Below, piece after piece: positions 25,236 to 38,216 of a stretch of DNA of 64,000 bases (the first letter of the stretch is position 1; each line of letters opens with the position of its first letter). The stretch spans positions 1-64,000 of the forward strand of contig JAJRSW010000039.1 in the NCBI GenBank assembly GCA_024278595.1. Reading direction: 5' to 3'. Made by a program: the position numbers and the translations under genes. The notes beneath the pieces are model-generated. The model was not told the DNA's origin. It was given only the letters and a program-made list of their open reading frames with translations, and searched no databases. Source of the DNA: Fidelibacterota bacterium (GTDB lineage: Bacteria; Fidelibacterota; UBA8477; JABMPR01).

Positions 25236-25847
25236 TTGCATCCAATCAAACGCGAGTTGACAAGTGAAGAGACGCCGGAGCTGATCCAGGCTGCCCGAGA
25301 GGGAGACCAGAAAGCACAGTCACAATTAGTGACCATGTACTCTGCTCGACTTTATAATTTGGGTTTGCGAATGCTGCGTAATAACGAGGACGCTGAAGAC
25401 ATGCTTCAGGAGACCTTTATTACGGCCTTTCAAAAGATCGATCGGTTCAAAGGTAAATCCAGTTTTTATACCTGGGTCTACCGGATTGGTGTGAATACCG
25501 CTCTCGGCAAATTGCGAAAGCAATCCAGGATGAAGATCTCCTATTCCATCCAGGAGCCTGATTTCGAAAATCTCCATGGTCTGGATATTTCAGACTGGCC
25601 GGAGTATATTGAGACCAAGGTTACGGATGAGGAGTTCAGGATCGCCCTGAAAGTCGCCTTGGATGATCTGGATGAGAAATATCGTTCGGTTTTTGTCCTG
25701 CGTGACCTGGAAGGTCTATCAACGGCTAAAACAGCCGGGATACTGGAGCTTTCCGAGAGCAATGTGAAGGTGAGACTTATGCGGGCCAGGCTTTTTTTGC
25801 GGGACAGTATGAGTAACTTTCTTAAACGCGAAGGTTGGTTGGTATAG
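25236..25847 (+). CDS. ECF-type RNA polymerase sigma factor
   Basis: A 203-aa sigma-70 family factor with only regions 2 and 4. Region 2: LYNLGLRMLRNNEDAEDMLQ and ETFITAFQKIDRFKGKSSFYTWVYRI. Region 4: LDDLDEKYRSVFVLRDLEG, LSTAKTAGILELSESNVKVR and LMRARLFLRD. Start appears to be TTG 25236 after a TAGGAA stretch. The stop overlaps the GTG of a small Cys-rich gene (TAGTG), the usual arrangement with a cognate anti-sigma factor. Glutaredoxin and groES follow, hinting at a redox or protein-stress regulon. Confidence 0.9.
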   Translation: MHPIKRELTSEETPELIQAAREGDQKAQSQLVTMYSARLYNLGLRMLRNNEDAEDMLQETFITAFQKIDRFKGKSSFYTWVYRIGVNTALGKLRKQSRMKISYSIQEPDFENLHGLDISDWPEYIETKVTDEEFRIALKVALDDLDEKYRSVFVLRDLEGLSTAKTAGILELSESNVKVRLMRARLFLRDSMSNFLKREGWLV

Positions 25848-26098
25848 TGAAACCAAAACATAATGTAGAGCTGCAAAAAAAGATCTGCCTTGATTTTGGT
25901 GCGGATATTGGCTCTGAATTGTGTCAGGAGGTTGGCCAACTCATGGAGGAATGCCCTGAGTGTAAGGTTTACTATGATACCATGCAGCGTTCCGTAAAAT
26001 TATACCGGGTCATTGAGGATGAGTGTGAGCTCCCCAATTCAGTATCCGAACGCCTCTTCAAAGTATTGAAACTGGATAATTTGAAGAAGGATGCATAG
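25847..26098 (+). CDS. Small Cys-rich putative anti-sigma factor
   Basis: An 83-aa soluble protein translated from a GTG overlapping the sigma gene stop. Cysteines occur at ICLDFG, ELCQEV and ECPECK. The spacing resembles the zf-HC2/ZAS anti-sigma finger, whose motif is Hx3CxxC, but the His position is occupied by a non-His residue (LMEECPECK). A helix follows. It could bind the ECF factor and respond to thiol oxidation or metal, but the missing His makes zinc binding uncertain. The call rests mainly on position and Cys pattern. Confidence 0.65.
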   Translation: MKPKHNVELQKKICLDFGADIGSELCQEVGQLMEECPECKVYYDTMQRSVKLYRVIEDECELPNSVSERLFKVLKLDNLKKDA

Positions 26099-26638: not shown

Positions 26639-26985
26639 CTATGTCTATATGGTAACCCACTACTTATCGTGGGTTGCCAGATGTGTTGGGAGTATACAAC
26701 CGGTTTAACGGTTTATTTCTTAAATAGGGAGTCTTCGGGCTCCCTATTTTTTATTCTCAGCTGACCCTGAGAATAACCACCGCGAAATCTCGCACTTTCG
26801 TGGGGACTAAAACGACCTACCCGGAAATTGCTCATAGGGTGAAGACGGTTTTTTTGTTTCAACACCACCGCCAGAACCTCAGGAAGCACCCCTGGCTACA
26901 GTGCCTTTACAGGTATAAAAATCTCAATAAAACGCAATATTATAATGTTGCTTGCAAATATTACGGAAAAAATTATACTGGAGCT
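26639..26985. other. Non-coding region between groES and the four-gene operon
   Basis: Holds a hairpin just after groES (AACCCAC 26654-26660, GTGGGTT 26669-26675), the terminator at 26722-26753, and about 230 bases upstream of the ATPase gene. That part contains a small dyad, CGAAATCTCGCACTTTCG, near 26783, and an AT-rich stretch with TATAAT at 26941-26946 that could be a -10 element; no convincing -35 was found at standard spacing. A frame open from 26800 has no family similarity before 26986. Confidence 0.5.
26722..26753 (+). terminator. Strong intrinsic terminator after groES
   Basis: A 10-bp perfect stem, AAATAGGGAG (26722-26731) and CTCCCTATTT (26740-26749), around a TCTTCGGG loop, followed by TTTATT. 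The stem and T-rich tail make this the clearest intrinsic terminator in the window. It separates the sigma-groES transcript from the next operon. Confidence 0.9.
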
Positions 26986-28164
26986 ATGAAACCAGTCTAT
27001 CAACGTAGTTACACACCAGAAATTTTAAGATTATGCGCTTGTTTTCCTGTTGTTGGAATAATTGGAGCGCGTCAGGTTGGAAAAACCACACTTTGCCGAA
27101 TAATCCAGGAGTTGACCGGCAAAGAGACTCAATACCTTGATCTGGAACTGAATTCTGATTTAAACAAACTGGAAAATGCCGAGCTATACCTAAACCGGTT
27201 CAAGGGGCAGTGTATCATTATCGATGAAGTTCAGCGCAAACCGGAACTCTTTCCCCTGCTGCGAGCTTTGGTGGATCAAACAGGAGACAATTGTCAATTT
27301 ATCGTAACCGGTTCTGCCTCACCTGAGCTACTCCGGCAAAGCACTGAAAGTCTTGCTGGGCGGATTGCCTATGTCGAAATTTCACCCTTTTCACTGATAG
27401 AACTCCCTGCTGGCATTAAACAAGAAACACACTGGTTCAGAGGAGGTTTTCCCAGAGCATTATTAGCACCCGATGATCATTATGCCTTGGAGTGGATTGC
27501 AAATTTTGTAAAGAGCTACCTGGAAAGAGATTTGCGTATGCTGGGATTATCTGCTGAACCACTTTTATTGCGACGATTATGGACAATGCTGGCTCATATA
27601 CACGGTAACCTGCTGAATTATTCAACTTTGGCTTCATCGCTGGGTATTGCTGTGAATACTGTGCGAAAATATATCGATTTATTTGAGCAAGCCTTTCTCA
27701 TTCGAAGACTGACTCCCCTGGTTACCAATCTGAAGAAAAAGTTGGTCAAATCACCAAAAATATACATCAGCGATAGTGGCGTTCTACATCATCTACTCGG
27801 GATAAACTCCAACGATGATTTATTCGGCCATCCCGGATTAGGAAACTCCTGGGAAGGTTATTGTATTTCCCAGGTTTTGAGTGTAGTCGGGAACCAATAT
27901 GAAGCCTCTTTCTTGCGCACCCATGATGGTGCAGAATGTGATTTGGTATTGTCAAGGGGGGGCGAGACCATGCTGGCAATTGAAATCAGGTTTTCGGATT
28001 CACCGACATTATCCAGAGGCAATACGGAAGCTTTTAAAAAAATAAAAGCCAACAAGAATTATGTTATTATACCCGAAGGTGAAGGCTACCCCTTGAATAA
28101 CTCAGTTGATGCAATAAATCTATCTGATTTTATTTTATCCGTAGCAGCAGTCAATAAAGGGTGA
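26986..28164 (+). CDS. DUF4143-type AAA ATPase
   Basis: About 392 aa of the ATPase family with an N-terminal AAA domain and a C-terminal DUF4143 nuclease-like domain. Walker A is GARQVGKTTLCR, Walker B is CIIIDEVQRKPELFPL, sensor-like VTGSASPELL, and a winged-helix part LNYSTLASSLGIAVNTVRKY. The C-terminal domain has the PD-(D/E)xK-like pattern GAECDLVLSRGGETMLAIEIRFS. ATG 26986 with GGAG just upstream is preferred over 26800. It lies 3 bp from the next gene and starts a four-gene operon. Two relatives occur at 35890-37044 and 37674-38216. Biological role of the family is poorly known. Confidence 0.85.
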   Translation: MKPVYQRSYTPEILRLCACFPVVGIIGARQVGKTTLCRIIQELTGKETQYLDLELNSDLNKLENAELYLNRFKGQCIIIDEVQRKPELFPLLRALVDQTGDNCQFIVTGSASPELLRQSTESLAGRIAYVEISPFSLIELPAGIKQETHWFRGGFPRALLAPDDHYALEWIANFVKSYLERDLRMLGLSAEPLLLRRLWTMLAHIHGNLLNYSTLASSLGIAVNTVRKYIDLFEQAFLIRRLTPLVTNLKKKLVKSPKIYISDSGVLHHLLGINSNDDLFGHPGLGNSWEGYCISQVLSVVGNQYEASFLRTHDGAECDLVLSRGGETMLAIEIRFSDSPTLSRGNTEAFKKIKANKNYVIIPEGEGYPLNNSVDAINLSDFILSVAAVNKG

Positions 28165-28167
28165 TGA

Positions 28168-29271
28168 ATGCTGGATACGACACAGCTCCGACAGTTGATA
28201 TTCAAGATCCTGAATTCAGAATTATCCGGCCAGGATATGAATGTTTATATCCGCCATTGTACAGCTTTCGCAACGGCTTATTTGTTTTCTCGGAAAAGTG
28301 CCGGCAACCTTTCTGCGGAATATTTAGAAGCCGGTGAAACAAGATTGCAGCAGTTGGCTATGGATTCCATCGCAGAGCTGTTTGCCAGAGACGAACAGGG
28401 CAGCTTTTACAAACTGAAACACTACTATGAACCGTTGCTGGGAGCGATCAGAGCCAATCCCGACGAAGCCCTGTTCATGACTCGCCGCCTTGTGATTGCC
28501 CATACAAAACAATCCATGGCACGGTTATTCCAAGGTAACGATCCCTCAGGCTACCGGATATACCGCAATCTATCCCTGGTCCACAAGAGAGATCCGAACA
28601 TTAACTCCTGCAAATATGGTGCTGAGACCTATCTGTTTTTGTGGGATCAACCTGGTGAGGCTGTATTCCCAGATGATTTGAACCCCTCTCAACCTGAGAT
28701 TGAGTGGGAAGCTGCCCTGCTCTTGCATGATCAGACACATAGGGGCCTGGATACACTGCCAGCCATTGTCCATGGTTTTCTGAGTGAGTTGAATCAGGAT
28801 CCCGATGTCCGTCACTTTATCTGCCGTAAAGTACTTTACAAAGTATTGAAGGAATCCATGGGATTGATAACGATCCCCATGGAAGAAAGCCATTTTATTG
28901 AAGATGGGGGACACCCCGGTTCTTTTGAGATCACTCAGACAGATCAAAAAGTATATACGGATCGGATTAAAATATTTCTCCGCCAGAATATCCAACAGCG
29001 CTTTGTTGCAAAATCCAAATTGGAAAAAGGGGCTGCTGAAGCGTATACCGGTATCCTTGATCTGTATTTTGAAGATCTCCTCATGGACGGATTTGCCGGG
29101 AAATTACCGGATTATCTGGCTAGATCAGCATTCAGGGACATGCAGCCTGAGCTATGGAAGGTTCATCGGGGCAGACTGGAGTATTTGATCAAAATAGGTC
29201 GGACCCAATTGCAATCCATGTATGAGCATGACTTTCCGAATCAACCCGAAGTGCCAATAGAGGATTCATAG
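28168..29271 (+). CDS. Helical protein of unrecognised family, second gene of the operon
   Basis: A 367-aa soluble protein with no signal peptide, no membrane segment and no recognised family. Predicted by eye as mostly helical, with an acidic loop (FPDDLNPSQPEIEWEAALLL) in the middle. The C-terminal segment WKVHRGRLEYLIKIGRTQLQ is basic and helical. The following gene encodes a zinc finger of the kind found in anti-sigma factors, so a very diverged sigma-like or DNA-binding factor is one possibility, but no sigma region 2 or 4 motif can be pointed to. It has AAAGGG as ribosome binding site and gaps of 3 and 4 bp to its neighbours. Confidence 0.6.
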   Translation: MLDTTQLRQLIFKILNSELSGQDMNVYIRHCTAFATAYLFSRKSAGNLSAEYLEAGETRLQQLAMDSIAELFARDEQGSFYKLKHYYEPLLGAIRANPDEALFMTRRLVIAHTKQSMARLFQGNDPSGYRIYRNLSLVHKRDPNINSCKYGAETYLFLWDQPGEAVFPDDLNPSQPEIEWEAALLLHDQTHRGLDTLPAIVHGFLSELNQDPDVRHFICRKVLYKVLKESMGLITIPMEESHFIEDGGHPGSFEITQTDQKVYTDRIKIFLRQNIQQRFVAKSKLEKGAAEAYTGILDLYFEDLLMDGFAGKLPDYLARSAFRDMQPELWKVHRGRLEYLIKIGRTQLQSMYEHDFPNQPEVPIEDS

Positions 29272-29275
29272 GATT

Positions 29276-30157
29276 ATGAGCAATTGTATCACCATAAATG
29301 TGTTGGAAAAGACAGCCTTGTACAAGTTGAAGGGGCTGCCCCTGGCACAAAAGACCACTGATCACCTGGAAAGCTGCCAGTTCTGCAGGGAGCAATTTGA
29401 AAATTTGATTCAGCAATTTCAGCTATATGAAGAGCAATTCGAGAAATTCCCTGAACATATCCTTGAGCAAATAAGCAATTCTATAACTCATAAGCAGCCA
29501 TCAGCATATATTTTTGAAGCCAGTTTATTAAAAGATACCGCTGAGCTGCATGGATTTGAGGAAAGCTTCAACACGCGTGCCGCTGATTCAAATCCCCGCC
29601 CGGCAGTTGCCCGCTTTCAGAGTATTGCGGTCTTGAGTACACCAGAGTCTGATTTGCTGGTACGGATAACCCATGATGCTGACCAAGGGAATACATGGCT
29701 GCATCTGATCGCTGAGGATGACGAAAAAGTGCGGCATGTCCCGATCCGAATCGAACCCACAGCTCAGGATTATATCACCGACGACCTGGGTCGGGTAAAC
29801 CTGGGTAATCAGCCCTTGCCGGTGGCAGAAAAGTTGAAAGTCATTGTGCAAACCCCCAGGGCCTCTTTTGATATGACTATCTTGGAGCAAAGCTGGTCTG
29901 AACTGGTGGGTAAGGGTGAGATTATTGTAACAAATCAAGCCAATGATCAGATGTTTATTGAGTTTCAACCACAAGGGGAGACTTATCGCTTGAGTGTACG
30001 CTTGCATGCTTCTCAGATTTCTGGTGGCTTGCAAAAGATTCAGATTGTGGCCAATAAGGAAAATGGTTTGAACAAAATAAAAGCTGTTAAACGCGGGGTA
30101 GCCATTTTCAGTGAGGTAACTGAAACAGCTTTGCTCAGGATAAAGATCTTCGGTTAG
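29276..30157 (+). CDS. zf-HC2-like zinc finger plus beta-rich domain protein
   Basis: A 293-aa protein. Residues about 1-45 carry a zinc-finger-like HLESCQFCREQF (Hx3CxxC), the pattern of ZAS/zf-HC2 anti-sigma domains. Residues about 105-293 are beta-rich and include YITDDLGRVNLGNQPLP, which resembles a carboxypeptidase-regulatory/transthyretin-like strand pair. No transmembrane segment is visible, unlike typical anti-sigma factors. It may sense or hold a partner, possibly the product of the preceding gene. It starts 4 bp after that gene and ends 4 bp before the Lon-like gene. Confidence 0.6.
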   Translation: MSNCITINVLEKTALYKLKGLPLAQKTTDHLESCQFCREQFENLIQQFQLYEEQFEKFPEHILEQISNSITHKQPSAYIFEASLLKDTAELHGFEESFNTRAADSNPRPAVARFQSIAVLSTPESDLLVRITHDADQGNTWLHLIAEDDEKVRHVPIRIEPTAQDYITDDLGRVNLGNQPLPVAEKLKVIVQTPRASFDMTILEQSWSELVGKGEIIVTNQANDQMFIEFQPQGETYRLSVRLHASQISGGLQKIQIVANKENGLNKIKAVKRGVAIFSEVTETALLRIKIFG

Positions 30158-30161
30158 GCCT

Positions 30162-32483
30162 GTGTCCATACCCCTGAGAGAAATCGAGCAACATTTCCGG
30201 GAGCTGCAATATTATCTCCGTAATGGTCTGGCTTCCCGGGTTAAACTGGATCTGATCAATCAATTCTTCTCAAATCTGGGTGCTCAGGAATTTCCACAAC
30301 GGTATCTGTCCTATTTTCAGGAGATTTATGAAGATTTTCTGGGACTACTGGAACCAGAGAACTTACAATTTAGATCAACTGGTTTCTTGGCAGATGTGGG
30401 TAAACTGGTGGAGGTGATGCAGCAGGCTGGTTTGAATGAGGTGTCTGATCCAGACTATCAGAAATATCATGACAATCTCAGATATCAGCAGATTGCCACT
30501 TGTTGTTATACAGCTGATCAGTCTGGCTTGGAGCTGCTCACCGGGATCAAAACACAGTATGAGTCAGGAGTCGACCCCCCTGATGTTTTAAGCAAGATTT
30601 TGTGTGCTAGTGAGTTCAAGGGCCATAAAAATATAGAGGTCCTGGAGAAAATCAGCCAGAACTGGCAAACTGATGCTCTGGGGTGGTCACAAAAAACTGT
30701 CTGGATTCCCCTGGTGGAGCAGGAAACGACTCAGAATTTTGGCAAAATAGTGCTTGCGACTCTTCAGCCGTTGAGCGTGGATGTTGAACAACGCAGGCAG
30801 GCGGCTGATATGGACCTGATATTCTTTAACAATCACCCCCTGAGTGTGGGTGACCCGGTTTACGATCAGGCTCTGGATGCGGTTGGCGCTGCAAAAATGC
30901 ACTTGAAGATTCGCAAACCGGGAAAAATTCCAAAATTCAGGATCATGTTTGGTTTTCCTGACAAACAATACTTCTATACTGGTGAATCTTTTGGTTTGGG
31001 AATGAGTCTGGCTGTGCTGGCTCAGATGGAAAAGGTGCTGATCCAGCGTAGCCAGCACCGGATTGCCCAAAATGCAGTCATCACAGGTGGGATTGACATT
31101 CTCGGGCAGGTGCGTGGTGTCTCAGAGGAGAGTTTACCTGCCAAGCTTGAGGCTTTCTATTATTCACCGTTTGAGAGCTTTGTGCATCCTGATGTCAATG
31201 CTGGTATTGTTGAAGATATTGTAAAACGTTTCTCGGGGGTTAGTCATTCTGAGCACCGCGAAGAATCTAGATTCTCAACCACCGTTTCCACCCCCTCGGC
31301 TCCCAATCTTCAAACTTTCGAACTCCCCAACCTTCCAACAGCAGATCTACCCACAATTCTCAAACATGCAACCGTCACCCAAAAACGGACCATCAGTCTA
31401 CGGGAATGGTCCCAGGCCCACATCCGCAAAAACCAGATCATGCGTTATGTGGCTGCTATTCTGGTAGTTGCAGGGATTGGCTGGGGGAGTTGGTGGTTTA
31501 CGCAGGATTTGAATCCGGTGAGTGCAACGATAGACCATGAATATTTGTATGCACGAAACAAAAGTGACAAGTTGCTCTGGACCTATAAATTTCCTTTTGA
31601 GCTTGATTTAAAACTTTATAATGCTAATCGGGAGGATAGACTGCTACATGTGTTTGATCTGGACAGTGACGGTGCAAATGAAGTTATATTAGGATTACGG
31701 GAAGAGGATGCAGAGGCTGCAGGTCTGGTCTATTGTTTTGGTCCCGACGGAAAATTATTATGGAAACTTGATCCACGGAAAAAATTTACATGCCGGGATG
31801 CAATAGTTAATGATCACTATTATGTGAAACACATCATTCCTGTTTGTGGAAAAAGTCAAGAGGATGAGAATTACCTGATCATTTGCTTTGCTCATCATCT
31901 GTATTTCCCTTATAAGATCATCAAGGTCAACAAAACCGGTCAAATAATTGGTGAATTTAACCATTGCGGGCAAATTCAGGGGATGAAATACTTCCCCGCT
32001 GAGGAAAATTATTCTGAAAAACTGGTCTTTTGGGGAACCAATAATCAGTATAACACAGCGGTATTGGGAAGTCTGGATCCGGACCATATTCAGGGCTATT
32101 CACCGGGCTATCGGCAGAAATGTGATATTTCAGATGCGATTACACCGACCGGAATGGTTTACATTAAATTCCCGGTCCCCGGTGATTATCAGGTTTCAAA
32201 AAGTTTTATTCGCTCAGAAGTAGGGAGCTACGTTTCAAACGGTGATGGCAGTTATTTAGCAAGTGTCATTTTAAGTGAGAATGCATATCTCCTGTATACA
32301 TTTAATCAAGATTTAACCCTGCTCAATTTCGATCTTTCAGATTCGTACTATGGTTTATACAAAGCGTATTATGGAGTTGATATTTATGATCAGAATGAGC
32401 CTGAGGAAGTAAGAAATTATTTCACTGCCCTCCAATACTGGAATGGTACCGGTTGGGTTTCGGGCTCTGATTTATCTGAATAG
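30162..32483 (+). CDS. Membrane protein with Lon-type S16 protease domain and FG-GAP-like outer domain
   Basis: A 773-aa protein from GTG 30162. Residues about 1-170 are helical. Residues about 200-362 resemble the Lon proteolytic domain: YTGESFGLGMSLAVLA, with Ser276 in the Lon GPSAG position, and ITGGIDILGQVRGV then PAKLEAF, with Lys328 in the GGLKEK position, giving the Ser-Lys dyad. No AAA module is present. A low-complexity linker (about 361-405) precedes one transmembrane helix, about 428-448 (YVAAILVVAGIGWGSWW). The rest is predicted outside the cytoplasm, starting with FDLDSDGANEVILGL and CFGPDGKLLWKLDP, as in FG-GAP/VCBS or PQQ-like propellers. Protease call is by motif only; the overall architecture is unfamiliar. 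Confidence 0.7.
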   Translation: MSIPLREIEQHFRELQYYLRNGLASRVKLDLINQFFSNLGAQEFPQRYLSYFQEIYEDFLGLLEPENLQFRSTGFLADVGKLVEVMQQAGLNEVSDPDYQKYHDNLRYQQIATCCYTADQSGLELLTGIKTQYESGVDPPDVLSKILCASEFKGHKNIEVLEKISQNWQTDALGWSQKTVWIPLVEQETTQNFGKIVLATLQPLSVDVEQRRQAADMDLIFFNNHPLSVGDPVYDQALDAVGAAKMHLKIRKPGKIPKFRIMFGFPDKQYFYTGESFGLGMSLAVLAQMEKVLIQRSQHRIAQNAVITGGIDILGQVRGVSEESLPAKLEAFYYSPFESFVHPDVNAGIVEDIVKRFSGVSHSEHREESRFSTTVSTPSAPNLQTFELPNLPTADLPTILKHATVTQKRTISLREWSQAHIRKNQIMRYVAAILVVAGIGWGSWWFTQDLNPVSATIDHEYLYARNKSDKLLWTYKFPFELDLKLYNANREDRLLHVFDLDSDGANEVILGLREEDAEAAGLVYCFGPDGKLLWKLDPRKKFTCRDAIVNDHYYVKHIIPVCGKSQEDENYLIICFAHHLYFPYKIIKVNKTGQIIGEFNHCGQIQGMKYFPAEENYSEKLVFWGTNNQYNTAVLGSLDPDHIQGYSPGYRQKCDISDAITPTGMVYIKFPVPGDYQVSKSFIRSEVGSYVSNGDGSYLASVILSENAYLLYTFNQDLTLLNFDLSDSYYGLYKAYYGVDIYDQNEPEEVRNYFTALQYWNGTGWVSGSDLSE
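31236..31340 (+). repeat. Intergenic-type repeat embedded in the Lon-like gene
   Basis: Within the coding sequence, TAGTCATTCTGAGCACCGCG (31240 onward) plus AAGAATCT belongs to the same GTCAT-n-GAGC-n-GAAG family as the arms at 17591-17767. It is followed by the word-like repeats CAAACTTTCGAACTCC and CCAACCTTCCAACAG. It stays in frame and encodes the Ser/Pro/Thr-rich linker between protease domain and membrane helix. Confidence 0.6.
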
Positions 32484-32597
32484 GTTATTGTTTTTTGTCA
32501 CATTATTAAAATATACCTGATTAATCCAATTACAGTTTTTTGATTTCTTTGTCCATGCGAATAGTTCTCACTAAAGCTAAATGAAAGGGGCTGTTTG

Positions 32598-35500
32598 ATG
32601 AAAAGCAAATCATTAAATCTTGTAAAACTGATTGTGTTGACCTGCTTGGTTACTACTAATGCGATTTTAGGTCAAACAATATTAAATGATGAATTTGAAG
32701 CAGGGAACCTGGATCAATGGACTATAGCAGGTCGTCAGGAAGGGGTGAATACAGCTGAAGTAACTCTCAGAGATGGTAGTAATCAAGCACATATCCGACA
32801 TGAAGATTACACTGAAATTACCTTAGAAAATCTTTTTACCTATTCTGAATCTCTCACCTTTCAATTCGATATGGAAGTTGCAGTTGCTTCGGATGCATCC
32901 AATACCAGTACCTTTTGGGCTTCGGCCGGTGTCTTCTTTAACTTTCTGGATGCTGATTCCATCAGTTTGGGTTGGGTTTCTTATGAGGCTTACACTTCCC
33001 AACTTCATCCTGATGGGCATAATACTGACAGCACCCGGGTTAATGAAATCATAGTGGGTAGTATGGATTCCTACTCATTCACAATATCGGAATTGCTTAG
33101 CCAGATATTTCTATCGGAAAATCCTTCAATTATCGAATTGGAGTTTCGTGCTTACACGACTGGTTGGCCTTATAATATGAGTGGAGATGTATGGCTAGAT
33201 AATGTGGTTGTTAGTCAAGCAATTCTGGATGATGGTCTTGTAGCTTTTTATCCGTTGAATGGTGACGCCAGTGATGAAAGTGGGAATGGGAGTGATGGAA
33301 CTGTCAACGGGGCCACTCTTACCATTGATCGGTTTGGAAATGAAAATAGTGCTTATGAATTTGATGGTGTAGATGATTTTATTGAGATCCCTGTTTTGTT
33401 TAATGGGGATCAAGATCCCATATCACTTGTTGCATGGGCCAAAATCCCAACCGGAGGTTCTGGGAATGGGACCATATTTTGTGAAACCAATGGATTTGAT
33501 CAACGAAACCAGTTCAAACTTCATGGGAATGATGAGTCTGTAAGCCTGACATTCGATCAGTATAGGCCTGCAGGTGGAGGAGCAAGCGCAAGCTTGATTA
33601 TTCCTTCATCTGAATACAATATTTGGGTTCAAATCGCTATTGTGAAAGAGGTAGATAGTGTATTCTTCTACAAAAACGGGATACTTTTTGAATCAGCGCT
33701 CCATGTTGAAACATATTCGGGTTCCGCAGTGAACACCGCTTATCTTGGTCGGCTAATAAATGCTAGTTATTCGTTCGCAGGAATATTGGATGACATCCGT
33801 ATTTACAATCATGCTGTTGACGAAACAGAGATCAATTCTCTGTATCACCTAGGTGGCTGGCCATTCAATGATCAGGATATGGTCTTGGATTTTGAGGATC
33901 AATCTCTCGATGACTGGATGATTGTAGAAGCAGTCCCTGGCTCGGGGCAAATGGAAATCCTAGCAGGTTCTCTGGATGGAACAGGTGAGTACGTCCTGCA
34001 GACACAGGTCTTCAATGCCGGAGGGAATGAAAATGATCGGGCTGCAGCGTATTATATGCCGTCTTCTGGTTGGGTTAATTATCAGATTTCCTATGATTTT
34101 CAGATTGTTTCAACAAACTATTATAACTACACAGACCAGTACTTTTTTATACAGGATGAATCCTCATTTTTACAAAATTGTTACCGGCTACGATTCTTCC
34201 AGGGAGATAACATTGCCTTCTTTAGTCTGATCCAGGATAGTGTATGGACGACACAGGCAACCGCTTCAATAACTCTAGATCCCGGTATTACATATCATGT
34301 AGATTTATTAACTGCAGCTGACAGTATTTCAATCCTGTTAGACGATGTTGTATTACTTGAGTTTGCAGATAACACTTTTCGAAGTGGTGGTTTTGCTATG
34401 GGTACATCTACAGCAGGTTTGGAAAATGGAATAACGGCCAATTATGACAATATCCATTGCTCAAATATTCAGCTCATGGAAAACCAATCACTATTGGTAG
34501 GGTCCATGTCAACCATGATGGGGCAATATGTCGATATTCCCGTATTTATGAGCACTGATAGTATTCGCGCCGCCGAGCTTGATTTCTCAGGCTATGCAGA
34601 AGGTCTGGAATATATCGGGATTGATACGGTGGGAACCATGATCGGTGGTCTGGACTGGACCTGGGCCGAGAATGAAGTTGACGGTGTGTTACAGATCGCC
34701 TTCGCCGGCTCGGAAGAGATTTCGGGTGAAGGTGTGTTCTGCTATCTGGAATTTCAGGTAGTGGGTGAGATTTGCACGACTGTGCCAGTAAACTGCGATT
34801 ATGCTCTTTTCAACGATGTGGAAGTCACCGATATCACCAACGGTTCAGTCTATATCAAGCCCATACCTGTTTTTGGTGATGTAGATGAGAATGGTTTGGT
34901 TCAGGCACTGGATGCTTCAGATATCCTGCTCTATGCGATAGACTCATTGGCGCTTGATTGTCAATCCTGGACCAATGCCAATGTTTATCTCGATTCCGTA
35001 GTAAATGCCATGGATGCCTCCATTATTCTGCAGTCGGTGGTGGATAGCATTGATTCATTACCAGTAATCCCGGGAGCAGCTGAATTCCTGGCTATGGGTA
35101 GTCTGGATGTCGATGAAATAGTTCAGGCAGGAATTGATCATTCAGTTGGCATTCAAATCAGGTTAACAAATGGTGAAAATATCTATTCCCAGGATTTGGT
35201 GCTCAGCTTTGATCCGGGTGTTCTGGAACCAAGAGCTTCCAATTTCATCGAATATTCAGCTAATACTGTTGGATTTGGGGCCGAGTACAAGGTAGTAGGC
35301 AATACAATTAGGATTGCAGCTGCTAGTGGTACATCAAATACAATTAATGGTCTGTTGGCTACATTAAATTTTGATGTCATCGCCGATGAAGCTGGTCAAA
35401 CTGAGATAGTCCTTGAGTCATTTGGGTTAAATTCAAACCTGGAAAGTGCTCTTGTGACAATTACTGTGGATATTAGGACTTCAGTGGCTGATGACAGTAT

Positions 35501-35786
35501 AATTCCTGACCAATTCATTCTGGAACAGAACTATCCCAACCCCTTCAACCCCACAACAACCATCAGTTATGGGTTACCTGAAGCATCTGAAGTATCAATC
35601 ATCATTTATGATGTGAAAGGGCGTGAGGTTGCAAATCTGGTGCAGTCGAGTCAATCAGCCGGTTGGTATGATATACAGTGGAATGGTTTGAGCAATTCGG
35701 GTAACCCGGCCAGTACCGGATTGTATTTCACCCGGATTCAGGCTGGTGGGTTTAGCGATGTAATTAAGATGGTGTATCTCAGATAA
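32598..35786 (+). CDS. Large secreted T9SS protein with LamG-like and cohesin/dockerin-like domains
   Basis: About 1062 aa with a signal peptide ending near ILGQ. Order: a beta-sandwich (about 28-205), a LamG/concanavalin-like domain starting LVAFYPLNGDASDESGNGSD (about 213-415), a second LamG-like domain (about 430-625), a cohesin-like domain (about 635-755), and a dockerin-like pair with FGDVDENGLVQALDASDILL and NAMDASIILQSVVD. A second cohesin-like domain (about 835-960) and the T9SS sorting tail NYPNPFNPTTTISYGLPEAS, ending VIKMVYLR, complete it. Probably surface-attached or released and carbohydrate-binding. ATG 32598 follows AAAGGGG. Its 3' end is duplicated at 37117-37500. Confidence 0.85.
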   Translation: MKSKSLNLVKLIVLTCLVTTNAILGQTILNDEFEAGNLDQWTIAGRQEGVNTAEVTLRDGSNQAHIRHEDYTEITLENLFTYSESLTFQFDMEVAVASDASNTSTFWASAGVFFNFLDADSISLGWVSYEAYTSQLHPDGHNTDSTRVNEIIVGSMDSYSFTISELLSQIFLSENPSIIELEFRAYTTGWPYNMSGDVWLDNVVVSQAILDDGLVAFYPLNGDASDESGNGSDGTVNGATLTIDRFGNENSAYEFDGVDDFIEIPVLFNGDQDPISLVAWAKIPTGGSGNGTIFCETNGFDQRNQFKLHGNDESVSLTFDQYRPAGGGASASLIIPSSEYNIWVQIAIVKEVDSVFFYKNGILFESALHVETYSGSAVNTAYLGRLINASYSFAGILDDIRIYNHAVDETEINSLYHLGGWPFNDQDMVLDFEDQSLDDWMIVEAVPGSGQMEILAGSLDGTGEYVLQTQVFNAGGNENDRAAAYYMPSSGWVNYQISYDFQIVSTNYYNYTDQYFFIQDESSFLQNCYRLRFFQGDNIAFFSLIQDSVWTTQATASITLDPGITYHVDLLTAADSISILLDDVVLLEFADNTFRSGGFAMGTSTAGLENGITANYDNIHCSNIQLMENQSLLVGSMSTMMGQYVDIPVFMSTDSIRAAELDFSGYAEGLEYIGIDTVGTMIGGLDWTWAENEVDGVLQIAFAGSEEISGEGVFCYLEFQVVGEICTTVPVNCDYALFNDVEVTDITNGSVYIKPIPVFGDVDENGLVQALDASDILLYAIDSLALDCQSWTNANVYLDSVVNAMDASIILQSVVDSIDSLPVIPGAAEFLAMGSLDVDEIVQAGIDHSVGIQIRLTNGENIYSQDLVLSFDPGVLEPRASNFIEYSANTVGFGAEYKVVGNTIRIAAASGTSNTINGLLATLNFDVIADEAGQTEIVLESFGLNSNLESALVTITVDIRTSVADDSIIPDQFILEQNYPNPFNPTTTISYGLPEASEVSIIIYDVKGREVANLVQSSQSAGWYDIQWNGLSNSGNPASTGLYFTRIQAGGFSDVIKMVYLR

Positions 35787-35889
35787 GGAAATACTGCCGA
35801 TAGGGTCTGGTCTATGAAGCGGGTTTACCTGTAACACAGATACAATCGTGCCGATAAAGCAGGGGCGGTCTCCGGGCAGTCCCTGCCGT

Positions 35890-37044
35890 TTAACCACCAA
35901 TCCATTCCAGATAATTATCCGGGTGGATTATTTTATGCTGCGTATCAGGATAAGTTTTGACCCAGGCCGGCGGAATCTTCACCTTCCTTTTTTGCTGCCA
36001 TTTAAATTCGAAGGCCCTTAATTCTCCATACTCTTCTTCAACCCAGTCCAATTCCTGTTGATCGTAAGTTCGCCAGAAATAATTCCGAACAAATCTATTG
36101 GAGTATTGTTGATATTTTATTCGTTCGGCAATAAGATAATTTTCCCACAACTCACCGACATCATTACGTAAATTTAAGTGATTAAAATTATTTATCACTG
36201 CATTACGAATACCTACATCATGAAAGTACCACCTCTGAGATTTGCTGATTTCTTTGCGAAGATTGCGAGAAAAACCCGGTAATTTATACAACACAAATAC
36301 TTTGGTCAATAAGTCTAAATATCTCTCGACCGTAGTTTTACTCATTTGTAACTGTTTGCCTAATTCCTGGATTGAGACTTCTTTACCAATCTGAAAGGCG
36401 ATCAACCGCAGTAAATCTAATATCTTTCCTGATCTGCGAATTCCCTCAAAACTCAAAATGTCCCTCAGCAGATAGTCATTTAGGATCCCGTTTAGATAAA
36501 CGCGCTTTTCGTCCCAATTATCGTACTGGAGCAGTTCCGGGTATGAACCGAAAATCAAGCGCTCTTCCAGTCTGGCTTTCGTTTCTAAAAAATCCTCTGT
36601 TTTTGCCAATTCCATCTGCGCTAACGGGTACAGCATGACCGTATTTTTTCGCCCTACCAAGGGTTCACCCAATTTGTTCGATAGGTCAAAGACTGAGGAA
36701 CCGGTTGCCACAATTTTTAGTTTATCAAAGTGATCTACAATTAGTTTTAGTTTACTCCCGATCTCCGGAATCCTTTGAGCCTCATCGATAATGAGATAGG
36801 ATTTTCCGCTGAGGAACCGTTTGTAATTCGTTACGGACTGCTCCCTCATGAGTTCAACATGCTGAGCATCATCACCATTAAGCAATAGCATCTCATCCGG
36901 CTGAATATTTTTTAAATATTCTTTGATGAACTCCGTCTTCCCAACCCGTCGAGCCCCCAACAGAACAAGGACCTTTTTTCCCTGGAGTCGTTTGGCAAAC
37001 GTGTCTGAAATTGCCCGCGGGATATAATCCATTTCCAATTGCAC
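35890..37044 (-). CDS. DUF4143-type AAA ATPase, second copy
   Basis: A 384-aa protein with the same plan as the gene at 26986 but clearly divergent. Walker A GARRVGKTEFIKEYL, Walker B SYLIIDEAQRIPEIGSK, VATGSSVFDLSNKL, a winged helix VSIQELGKQLQMSKTTVERY, and a C-terminal nuclease-like pattern QQELDWVEEEYGELRAFEFK. All parts look intact. Start GTG 37044 or ATG 37032. It reads leftward against its neighbours and sits between the two copies of a T9SS tail, suggesting that it arrived by insertion or recombination. Confidence 0.85.
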   Translation of the reverse strand: MQLEMDYIPRAISDTFAKRLQGKKVLVLLGARRVGKTEFIKEYLKNIQPDEMLLLNGDDAQHVELMREQSVTNYKRFLSGKSYLIIDEAQRIPEIGSKLKLIVDHFDKLKIVATGSSVFDLSNKLGEPLVGRKNTVMLYPLAQMELAKTEDFLETKARLEERLIFGSYPELLQYDNWDEKRVYLNGILNDYLLRDILSFEGIRRSGKILDLLRLIAFQIGKEVSIQELGKQLQMSKTTVERYLDLLTKVFVLYKLPGFSRNLRKEISKSQRWYFHDVGIRNAVINNFNHLNLRNDVGELWENYLIAERIKYQQYSNRFVRNYFWRTYDQQELDWVEEEYGELRAFEFKWQQKRKVKIPPAWVKTYPDTQHKIIHPDNYLEWIGG

Positions 37045-37116: not shown

Positions 37117-37479
37117 ATGGAATCATTCAAACTGAATGGTAATTTGAATCTGGATATAAAAACCTTATCCATTGTTTCCACTGATCAACAACTTGAGCTT
37201 CCAACTCAGTATACTTTAAAACAGAACTACCCCAACCCCTTCAACCCAACCACGACTATTAGTTACGGATTACCAGAAGCATCTGATGTATCCATCATCA
37301 ACGATGTGAAGGGTCGTGAGGTTACGAATCTGGTACAATCAAGCCAAGCAGCCGGTTGGTATGATGTACAGTGGAATGGGACCACAGAGGCTGGTAATCC
37401 AGTGAGCACCGGACTGTATTTTGCCAGAATCAAGGCCGGTGGGTTTAGTGATGTGATCAAAATGGTTTATTTACAATAA
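37117..37479 (+). pseudogene. Duplicated T9SS tail, remnant of a secreted protein gene
   Basis: The 120-codon frame matches the last about 110 codons of the gene ending at 35786: NYPNPFNPTTTISYGLPEAS, VKGREV, NLVQSSQ, AGWYD, QWNG and GGFSDVIKMVYL are shared. Similarity starts upstream at ESF-LN-NL and continues past the stop (TAAGGAAAT). One codon is lost (IINDVKG against IIIYDVKG). No signal peptide or cargo domain is present, so it cannot be a functional exported protein. Confidence 0.8.
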
Positions 37480-37549
37480 GGAAATTCTACCGCTGAAAAC
37501 GTATTTGATGCTGTCGGGCGGGTTTTCATAAAATATGGGGCACTCTCAG

Positions 37550-37673: not shown

Positions 37674-38216
37674 TTACCACAACTCATTAAAAGGAACAGC
37701 ATAAAAACGGTCCCCGAAGGGCAAGACTTTATCTCCATCATACAGGACAACTCCGCAGATAAATTTGTTGTGGCTGGCTTTTAGTCGTCTCAAACCGGCA
37801 AAATCAGATGTTCTCACACTGGCAGAAGCTTTGACCTCAACCCCGCAGATGGCGCTCCCATTCTGCTCACTCACCACGTCAACCTCTACTTTGTCCTTAT
37901 CACGATAATGAAAAAAGCGCAAGGATGAATCTGTCCAGCTCGATTGACGTCGCAATTCCTGATTCACAAAAAAAAGCTGATCCAAGAAACTTATTTTTAA
38001 TGCAGCATTTTCAATCTCCATTTGGGCCAATGGAGCCAGGTGGATCACTTCCATTCTGCCGGCTAACGAATCTGCTAGTTTTGGAATAAGCATAATGTTT
38101 GCTGAACCTGTCAGTATGAAACGACCCGGCCGGCGGTCTTGAGCAACAAGAGCCTTGATTGAAGTAAATAGTTCCGGAGCTCGCTGAATCTCATCAATAA
38201 CAACACTCCGCGCCAT
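37674..38216 (-). pseudogene. Truncated and internally deleted DUF4143 ATPase
   Basis: A 180-codon leftover of a third DUF4143-type ATPase. Walker B (SVVIDEIQRAPELFTSIKAL) and TGSANIMLIPKLADSLAGRM survive. The Walker A N-terminus is missing: just upstream the sequence changes to the repeat at 38227-38273. After LAPLAQMEIENAAL the frame jumps to the nuclease-like C-terminal part (DKVEVDVVSEQNGSAICGVEVKAS in pieces), so the middle winged-helix region is deleted. It cannot bind ATP as it stands. Confidence 0.8.

What the first reader, a model, noticed from the sequence alone, without database searches (positions are those of the whole stretch)
26986..32483. Candidate undescribed four-gene system: DUF4143 ATPase, helical protein, zinc-finger/beta protein, Lon-like membrane protease
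Seen: four genes with gaps of 3, 4 and 4 bp, bounded upstream by a strong terminator and about 230 bp of leader, and downstream by an unrelated secreted protein. Known: zf-HC2-type fingers usually hold sigma factors, Lon-type S16 domains need an ATPase to feed substrate, and DUF4143 ATPases are often accessory or conflict-type genes. Inference: the outer FG-GAP-like domain could sense something outside the cytoplasm, the protease could cut the zinc-finger protein, and the helical protein would be released as effector or regulator. The ATPase may power the protease or may simply be a passenger at the front of the operon.
Basis: partly seen in the sequence, partly recalled or inferred. Interest (0 to 1): 0.85.

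Follow-up and report, generated by a model that had tools for sequence, protein, structure and literature searches.

The report
Membrane protease releasing a gene regulator
Three neighbouring genes in an uncultured marine bacterium always travel together and appear to form an unreported signalling switch, in which a membrane protein with a sugar-enzyme-like outer domain carries an inner Lon-type protease likely to cut an anti-sigma-like protein and free its partner; the fourth gene, an ATPase, is only a passenger.

Summary
The real unit is a three-gene cassette (g2-g3-g4), adjacent and in order at 21 loci; no locus with enough contig lacks a partner. g4 is an AAA-less Lon-type peptidase whose Ser276/Lys328 dyad is kept in every copy; it is predicted to face the cytoplasm behind one membrane helix, with an FG-GAP propeller resembling carbohydrate-active propellers outside. 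g3 begins with a zinc anti-sigma finger; the six proteins outside its family that its profile finds are all encoded beside ECF sigma genes. g2 is a new helical family in the sigma position, but sequence and fold tests give no sigma signal. The DUF4143 ATPase is a passenger, absent from the same locus in a relative. The next gene is often a secreted dockerin/cohesin/LamG protein. Best model: an outside-in proteolytic switch working like CRISPR CalpL/T/S, but with an external sensor. Cleavage, ligand and g2 activity are inferred. Three distant g3 homologues lack the finger, so the anti-sigma reading is not universal.

The parts
26986..28164 (+). g1: AAA_14/DUF4143 ATPase (392 aa), judged a passenger at the front of the operon
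   Evidence: Pfam E 7e-42/1e-28; next to the cassette only here and in L037; absent from the otherwise same locus L045
26722..26749 (+). intrinsic terminator after groES, before the operon
   Evidence: 12-pair stem, T tail
26932..26971 (+). imperfect palindrome just upstream of g1; a better form of the same palindrome precedes g1 in L037 and g2 in L045
28168..29271 (+). g2: 367-aa all-helical protein of a new family (A.D.IA.LFARD / DP.G..IYRNL / EY.IK motifs), in the sigma-factor position; candidate released regulator
   Evidence: family of 23; AF2 pLDDT 81 whole, 90 for residues 1-148; no PDB or Pfam match
29276..30157 (+). g3: 293-aa protein without membrane helix, N-terminal zinc anti-sigma (ZAS) finger plus a conserved C-terminal domain; candidate inhibitor and protease substrate
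29285..29386 (+). ZAS zinc finger C4-x25-H30-x3-C34-x2-C37
   Evidence: all four ligands invariant in 12 of 12 finger-bearing members
30162..32483 (+). g4: 773-aa one-pass membrane protein with cytoplasmic Lon-type peptidase and outer propeller
30747..31247 (+). g4 Lon-type (S16) peptidase domain, residues about 196-362; Ser276 codon 30987-30989, Lys328 codon 31143-31145
   Evidence: all 46 PDB hits at E<=1 are Lon; Ser 25/25, Lys 26/26
31437..31499 (+). g4 transmembrane helix, about residues 426-446, basic N-side flank, neutral to acidic C-side flank (N-in)
   Evidence: window peak 1.45; 11 of 13 aligned g4 sequences 1.7-2.9
31512..32480 (+). g4 outer FG-GAP beta-propeller domain, about residues 451-773, nearest to PL11 and carrageenase propellers
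   Evidence: FG-GAP_3 in 10/13, Beta-prop_CGLA 8/13, RGL11_C 4/13 members; YesW/PL11 in PDB
32535..32564 (+). 30-bp block between g4 and the secreted gene, found once in the genome, 24/30 identical in L037: candidate target promoter (inferred)
32595..35786 (+). large secreted LamG/dockerin/cohesin protein with sorting domain; candidate target of the switch (start may be ATG 32600)
   Evidence: comparable secreted proteins after six other copies

Best explanation
g2-g3-g4 is a signalling cassette that works by regulated proteolysis. g3 binds and silences g2 in the cytoplasm through its zinc anti-sigma finger and C-terminal domain. g4 spans the inner membrane once; its outer FG-GAP propeller detects a ligand, probably a polysaccharide or a surface component, and this activates its cytoplasmic, ATP-independent Lon-type Ser-Lys protease. 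The protease cuts g3 and frees g2, which changes transcription, with the secreted dockerin/cohesin/LamG gene just downstream as the first candidate target. Shown: the cassette, the domains, the conserved active site and zinc ligands, and the recurrent downstream surface genes. Predicted: the topology. Inferred: the ligand, activation, cleavage of g3, and the activity of g2. The DUF4143 ATPase is not part of it.
For: Co-conservation: g2, g3 and g4 are adjacent and in order at 21 loci (the window plus 20 others); one further copy is interrupted, one has a broken g4, and every other partial case is at a contig edge. g2 matches occur in 19 of 245 phylum genomes. Protease: the g4 Lon-domain profile hits only Lon in the PDB, 46 of 46 at E<=1, best 6.5e-5; S276, T308, G309, G315 and K328 are invariant in 13 aligned members; Ser in 25/25 and Lys in 26/26 sequences covering each position, down to about 17% identity. 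In other phylum genomes the g4 profile finds Lon-sized ORFs (about 800 aa) with its residues ~300-366 and other large ORFs with the propeller residues 474-611. Anti-sigma: C4/H30/C34/C37 invariant in 12, the published HisXXXCysXXCys motif (PMC4598750); RsiW is the best natural zinc-finger PDB match, weak at E 0.033; six of six examined out-of-family hits of the g3 profile lie next to an ECF sigma gene. Topology. Sensor: PL11/carrageenase-type propeller. Output: a large secreted protein directly downstream on the same strand in seven copies.
Against: g2 has no detectable sigma-factor homology: hhalign probability below 1% and scores within the shuffled range; its confident 148-residue N-terminal model has no PDB match, sigma factors included. 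Three g3 homologues of the more distant branch (L038, L040, L041) lack the finger, so it is not essential in all versions. Secreted proteins with the FlgD_ig sorting domain are common in this genome (75 matches), and many copies have other genes downstream, so the target link is circumstantial. The Lon profile E-values are modest (1e-4 to 1e-5). No cleavage or binding data exist.
Confidence: 0.57

Rival explanations
1. Conflict or defence module: g2 is a helical effector (not a transcription factor) held inactive by g3; on phage or competitor contact sensed outside, g4 cuts g3 and g2 harms or arrests the cell.
For: Patchy distribution (19/245 genomes), paralogues and tandem g4 copies, faster divergence of the outer domain than of the protease in some pairs (69% vs 24%, 64% vs 28%, 73% vs 37%), and a neighbouring DUF4143 gene matching the PADLOC candidate PDC-S01.
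Against: g2-g4 match no PADLOC model convincingly; g2 shows no nuclease, pore or enzyme motif; no relative of g2 in viral contigs or phages, nor of g4 in plasmids; neighbours include housekeeping genes such as groES, purH and ychF rather than islands; in other pairs the outer domain is as conserved as the protease.
Confidence: 0.2
2. g2 is a true, extremely diverged sigma factor, so the cassette is an ECF-like sigma/anti-sigma pair with an unusual protease.
For: Position just before a zinc anti-sigma gene; all-helical; sigma factors 4mq9_F, 5ipl_F, 6uu9 and 6omf appear at E about 1-7 in the whole-model fold search, with the best TM-scores of the listed hits for two of them.
Against: No profile signal; sigma factors vanish when the confident N-terminal domain is searched alone; at 367 aa it is far longer than an ECF sigma.
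Confidence: 0.15
3. The Lon-type domain is a non-proteolytic assembly module and the cassette is a structural membrane complex.
For: Some S16-fold domains are not proteases (own knowledge: RadA, BrxL); ChlI also matches 3 of 13 members weakly.
Against: Ser and Lys are kept in every copy that covers them, down to about 17% identity, as expected for an active protease.
Confidence: 0.06
4. A four-gene machine in which the DUF4143 ATPase powers the Lon-type protease.
For: A 3-bp gap to g2 and a shared upstream region here and in L037.
Against: Missing from L045, the same locus in a relative, and from the other copies; 12 DUF4143 matches are scattered through this genome.
Confidence: 0.02

Closest known systems
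CalpL-CalpT-CalpS (type III CRISPR-associated Lon protease cascade; PMC11417357, PMC12751052)
   Same: Three proteins: an AAA-less Lon-type protease, an anti-sigma protein, and its partner; in Calp the protease cuts the anti-sigma protein to free the sigma factor.
   Different: CalpL senses cyclic tetra-adenylate with a SAVED domain; g4 has a membrane helix and an outer FG-GAP propeller instead. No CalpL match was found for g4, and g2 is not recognisably a sigma factor.
SigI-RsgI of Clostridium thermocellum (PMC4711584)
   Same: Outer carbohydrate-type sensor, anti-sigma function inside, control of dockerin/cohesin surface proteins.
   Different: In RsgI sensor and anti-sigma are one protein, cut by separate proteases; here sensor and protease are one protein and the anti-sigma-like protein is separate and soluble.
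RsiW/RasP and RseA regulated proteolysis (PMC4598750)
   Same: Zinc anti-sigma finger (RsiW) and release by proteolysis.
   Different: There the anti-sigma itself spans the membrane and is cut by site-1 and site-2 proteases; g3 has no membrane helix and no site-2 protease is in the cassette.
YlbL (Lon-PDZ membrane protease of Bacillus subtilis; PMC6051672)
   Same: One membrane helix and an AAA-less Lon domain with a Ser-Lys dyad.
   Different: YlbL has a PDZ domain and is thought to act outside the cell; g4's Lon domain is predicted cytoplasmic with a propeller outside.

Membership tests
Lon-type S16 peptidase (g4) | Ser-Lys catalytic dyad in the S16 domain | tested here: met
   S276/K328 invariant; 46/46 PDB hits are Lon
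Lon-type S16 peptidase (g4) | AAA+ domain, as in LonA and LonB | tested here: not met
   No AAA domain in g4, so it is Lon-type, not LonA or LonB
Lon-type S16 peptidase (g4) | proteolytic activity | not testable with these tools
   needs purified protein
Zinc anti-sigma (ZAS) domain (g3) | HxxxCxxC plus a fourth Cys or His ligand | tested here: met
   C4, H30, C34, C37 invariant in 12/12 finger-bearing members; absent in L038, L040, L041
Zinc anti-sigma (ZAS) domain (g3) | detectable kinship with ECF anti-sigma factors | tested here: met
   6/6 examined outside hits adjacent to ECF sigma genes; RsiW E 0.033
Zinc anti-sigma (ZAS) domain (g3) | binds and inhibits a sigma factor | not testable with these tools
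   needs a binding assay; g2 is not a recognisable sigma factor
Sigma-70 family (g2) | regions 2 and 4 detectable by profile or fold | tested here: not met
   weak hint only
CalpL/T/S system | SAVED sensor on the Lon protease | tested here: not met
   no SAVED-type match; propeller instead
CalpL/T/S system | Lon-type protease and anti-sigma-type protein encoded together with a partner | tested here: met
CalpL/T/S system | linked to type III CRISPR | not tested
   no CRISPR search was run
DUF4143 ATPase as system member | travels with genes 2-4 | tested here: not met
   only window and L037; absent in L045 and the other copies

The most novel reading that the evidence does not exclude
g4 is a single-protein transmembrane receptor-protease, with a propeller sensor outside and an ATP-independent Lon-type protease inside, that signals by cutting a soluble anti-sigma-type protein and releasing a regulator of a new, non-sigma family (g2): one-step outside-in signalling without site-1 or site-2 proteases.
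Probability: 0.4. Interest if true: 0.82.

Novelty: new variant of a known kind. Interest (0 to 1): 0.62.

Why it matters
If true, bacteria have a compact route from an outside sensor to the cytoplasm: receptor and protease are one protein, and a Lon-type domain does the cutting without an ATPase. It would show that the Lon/anti-sigma logic known from CRISPR CalpL/T/S also exists with a different, external sensor, and it would give a first regulatory link for the abundant dockerin/cohesin-type surface proteins of Neomarinimicrobiota. It also defines a new helical protein family (g2) that a zinc anti-sigma-type protein seems to hold.

Tried and rejected
ATPase as a system member: rejected by the ATPase-free locus L045 and the other copies. 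g2 as a recognisable sigma factor: sought by Pfam, by hhalign against a profile of relatives' sigma factors, by PDB profile searches of the whole, N- and C-terminal parts, and by Foldseek of two models; not supported. Viral, phage or plasmid origin: none found. g4 relatives in other phyla: the single-sequence scan of genome contigs found nothing; the g2 scan found only Neomarinimicrobiota and related FCB records. PADLOC: nothing convincing for g2-g4. A g2 regulon motif: the 30-bp block before the secreted gene occurs once in the genome, so no regulon could be drawn. Palindrome as a cassette operator: it also precedes g2 where the ATPase is missing, but several other DUF4143 genes carry palindromes of their own, so its ownership stays open. 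Papers on a Lon / anti-sigma / FG-GAP combination: none found.

Full report
Observation. The window is contig C18 of a 3.26-Mb draft genome; the relatives found in named records are Candidatus Neomarinimicrobiota MAGs. The four ORFs lie as described, with gaps of 3, 4 and 4 bp. The ATPase most likely starts at ATG 26986: its orthologue in L037 has 391 codons, against 392 from that ATG. A terminator hairpin after groES lies at 26722-26749.

What travels together. A relative search for g4, then profile searches of 245 phylum genomes for g2, g3 and g4, gave 20 further loci in which g2, g3 and g4 are adjacent, on one strand and in the same order: L031, L032, L033, L034, L035, L036, L037, L038, L039, L040, L045, L046, L090, L091, L092, L093, L094, L095, L097 and L100. 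g2 is shortened or interrupted in L036 and L094. In L041 three opposite-strand genes lie between g3 and g4; in L048 only the propeller end of g4 remains. All other partial cases end at a contig edge. One copy (L031) is a paralogue in the window's own genome. L032 and L038 carry tandem g4 copies.

The ATPase. g1 is AAA_14/DUF4143. It sits before g2 only in the window and in L037. L045 is the same locus (sigma, small partner, glutaredoxin, groES, then g2-g3-g4) without it. The genome holds 12 DUF4143 matches. It is a passenger.

g4. The family profile of residues 190-365 finds only Lon proteases in the PDB (46 of 46 at E<=1; best 6.5e-5), and the printed alignment puts Ser276 and Lys328 on the Lon dyad. 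The Ser is present in 25 of 25 and the Lys in 26 of 26 sequences covering each position. One membrane helix follows; the flank before it is basic and the one after it mostly neutral or acidic in the homologues, so the protease should face the cytoplasm and the C-terminal half the outside (the window's peak is 1.45 on the Kyte-Doolittle scale, lower than the 1.7-2.9 of 11 homologues). The outer half matches FG-GAP repeats in 10 of 13 members, and lambda-carrageenase and family-11 rhamnogalacturonan lyase propellers in several. In three comparisons (window with L037, window with L032, the L038 tandem) the protease is 64-73% identical while the outer half is 24-37%; in the L033-L035 branch the two are about equally conserved.

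g3. C4, H30, C34 and C37 are invariant in all 12 members with the finger. This is the published HisXXXCysXXCys zinc anti-sigma motif with a fourth Cys (PMC4598750). The best natural zinc-finger match in the PDB is RsiW, E 0.033, weak alone. The strongest test is indirect: six weak hits of the g3 profile outside the family were examined and all six are encoded next to an ECF sigma factor gene. Three distant members (L038, L040, L041) lack the finger and keep only the C-terminal part. g3 has no membrane helix.

g2. All-helical, with no Pfam or PDB relative. AlphaFold2 gave pLDDT 81 for the whole and 90 (pTM 0.77) for residues 1-148. Fold searches returned nothing significant. Sigma factors appeared at E about 1-7 with the whole model, but not with the confident domain. 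Profile comparison with relatives' sigma factors stayed within shuffled scores. So g2 stands where a sigma factor would stand but cannot be called one.

Surroundings. Directly downstream on the same strand, the window, L038 and L043 have LamG/dockerin/cohesin proteins with a sorting domain, L037 an FG-GAP/cohesin protein, L044 a BACON protein, L032 a PKD/BNR protein and L097 a LamG-repeat protein. Sorting-domain proteins are common in the genome (75 FlgD_ig matches) and other copies have unrelated genes downstream, so this is suggestive only. Between g4 and this gene the window and L037 share a 30-bp block (24/30), found once in the genome.

Mechanism. The best reading is regulated proteolysis: the outer propeller senses, the inner Lon-type domain cuts g3, and g2 is released and alters expression, perhaps of the surface gene. 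It works like CalpL/T/S, but lacks the SAVED sensor and a recognisable sigma factor, so it is not filed as a Calp system. In biology it also recalls SigI/RsgI. Cleavage, binding and ligand are untested.

Limits. Other phyla were tested only by short-pattern scans. The genomes are drafts. The E-values for the Lon domain are modest but consistent.

Noticed in passing
L045 5027-5069; L037 8014-8066; window 26932-26971; L139 upstream of 1121; window upstream of 37044: Several DUF4143 ATPase genes have a palindrome 10-34 bp before the start codon, different for each gene (scores 6-13 against a control median of 5, 90% at 6). In L045 the palindrome remains although the ATPase gene is gone.
   Followed up: partly
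window 35524-35799 and 37220-37492: A second DUF4143 ATPase gene (35890-37044, minus strand) lies between two 76-86% identical copies of the sorting-domain end of the secreted protein, as if inserted into or recombined within it.
   Followed up: partly
window 37674-38216: Shortened third DUF4143 ATPase gene, probably decayed.
   Followed up: no
L048 6212-6996: In the single-contig genome G036 the g4 gene is broken: the protease half is missing and only the propeller end is left.
   Followed up: yes
L032 5219-9491; L038 1904-6420: Tandem g4 copies behind a shared g2-g3; the L038 pair has a conserved protease (73%) and diverged outer domains (37%).
   Followed up: partly
window 25236-26098: An ordinary ECF sigma factor gene with a small overlapping Cys-containing partner ORF lies just upstream, before glutaredoxin and groES; conserved in L037 and L045.
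   Followed up: no
L041 2691-4477: Three opposite-strand genes interrupt the cassette and a second g3-like gene precedes g4.
   Followed up: no
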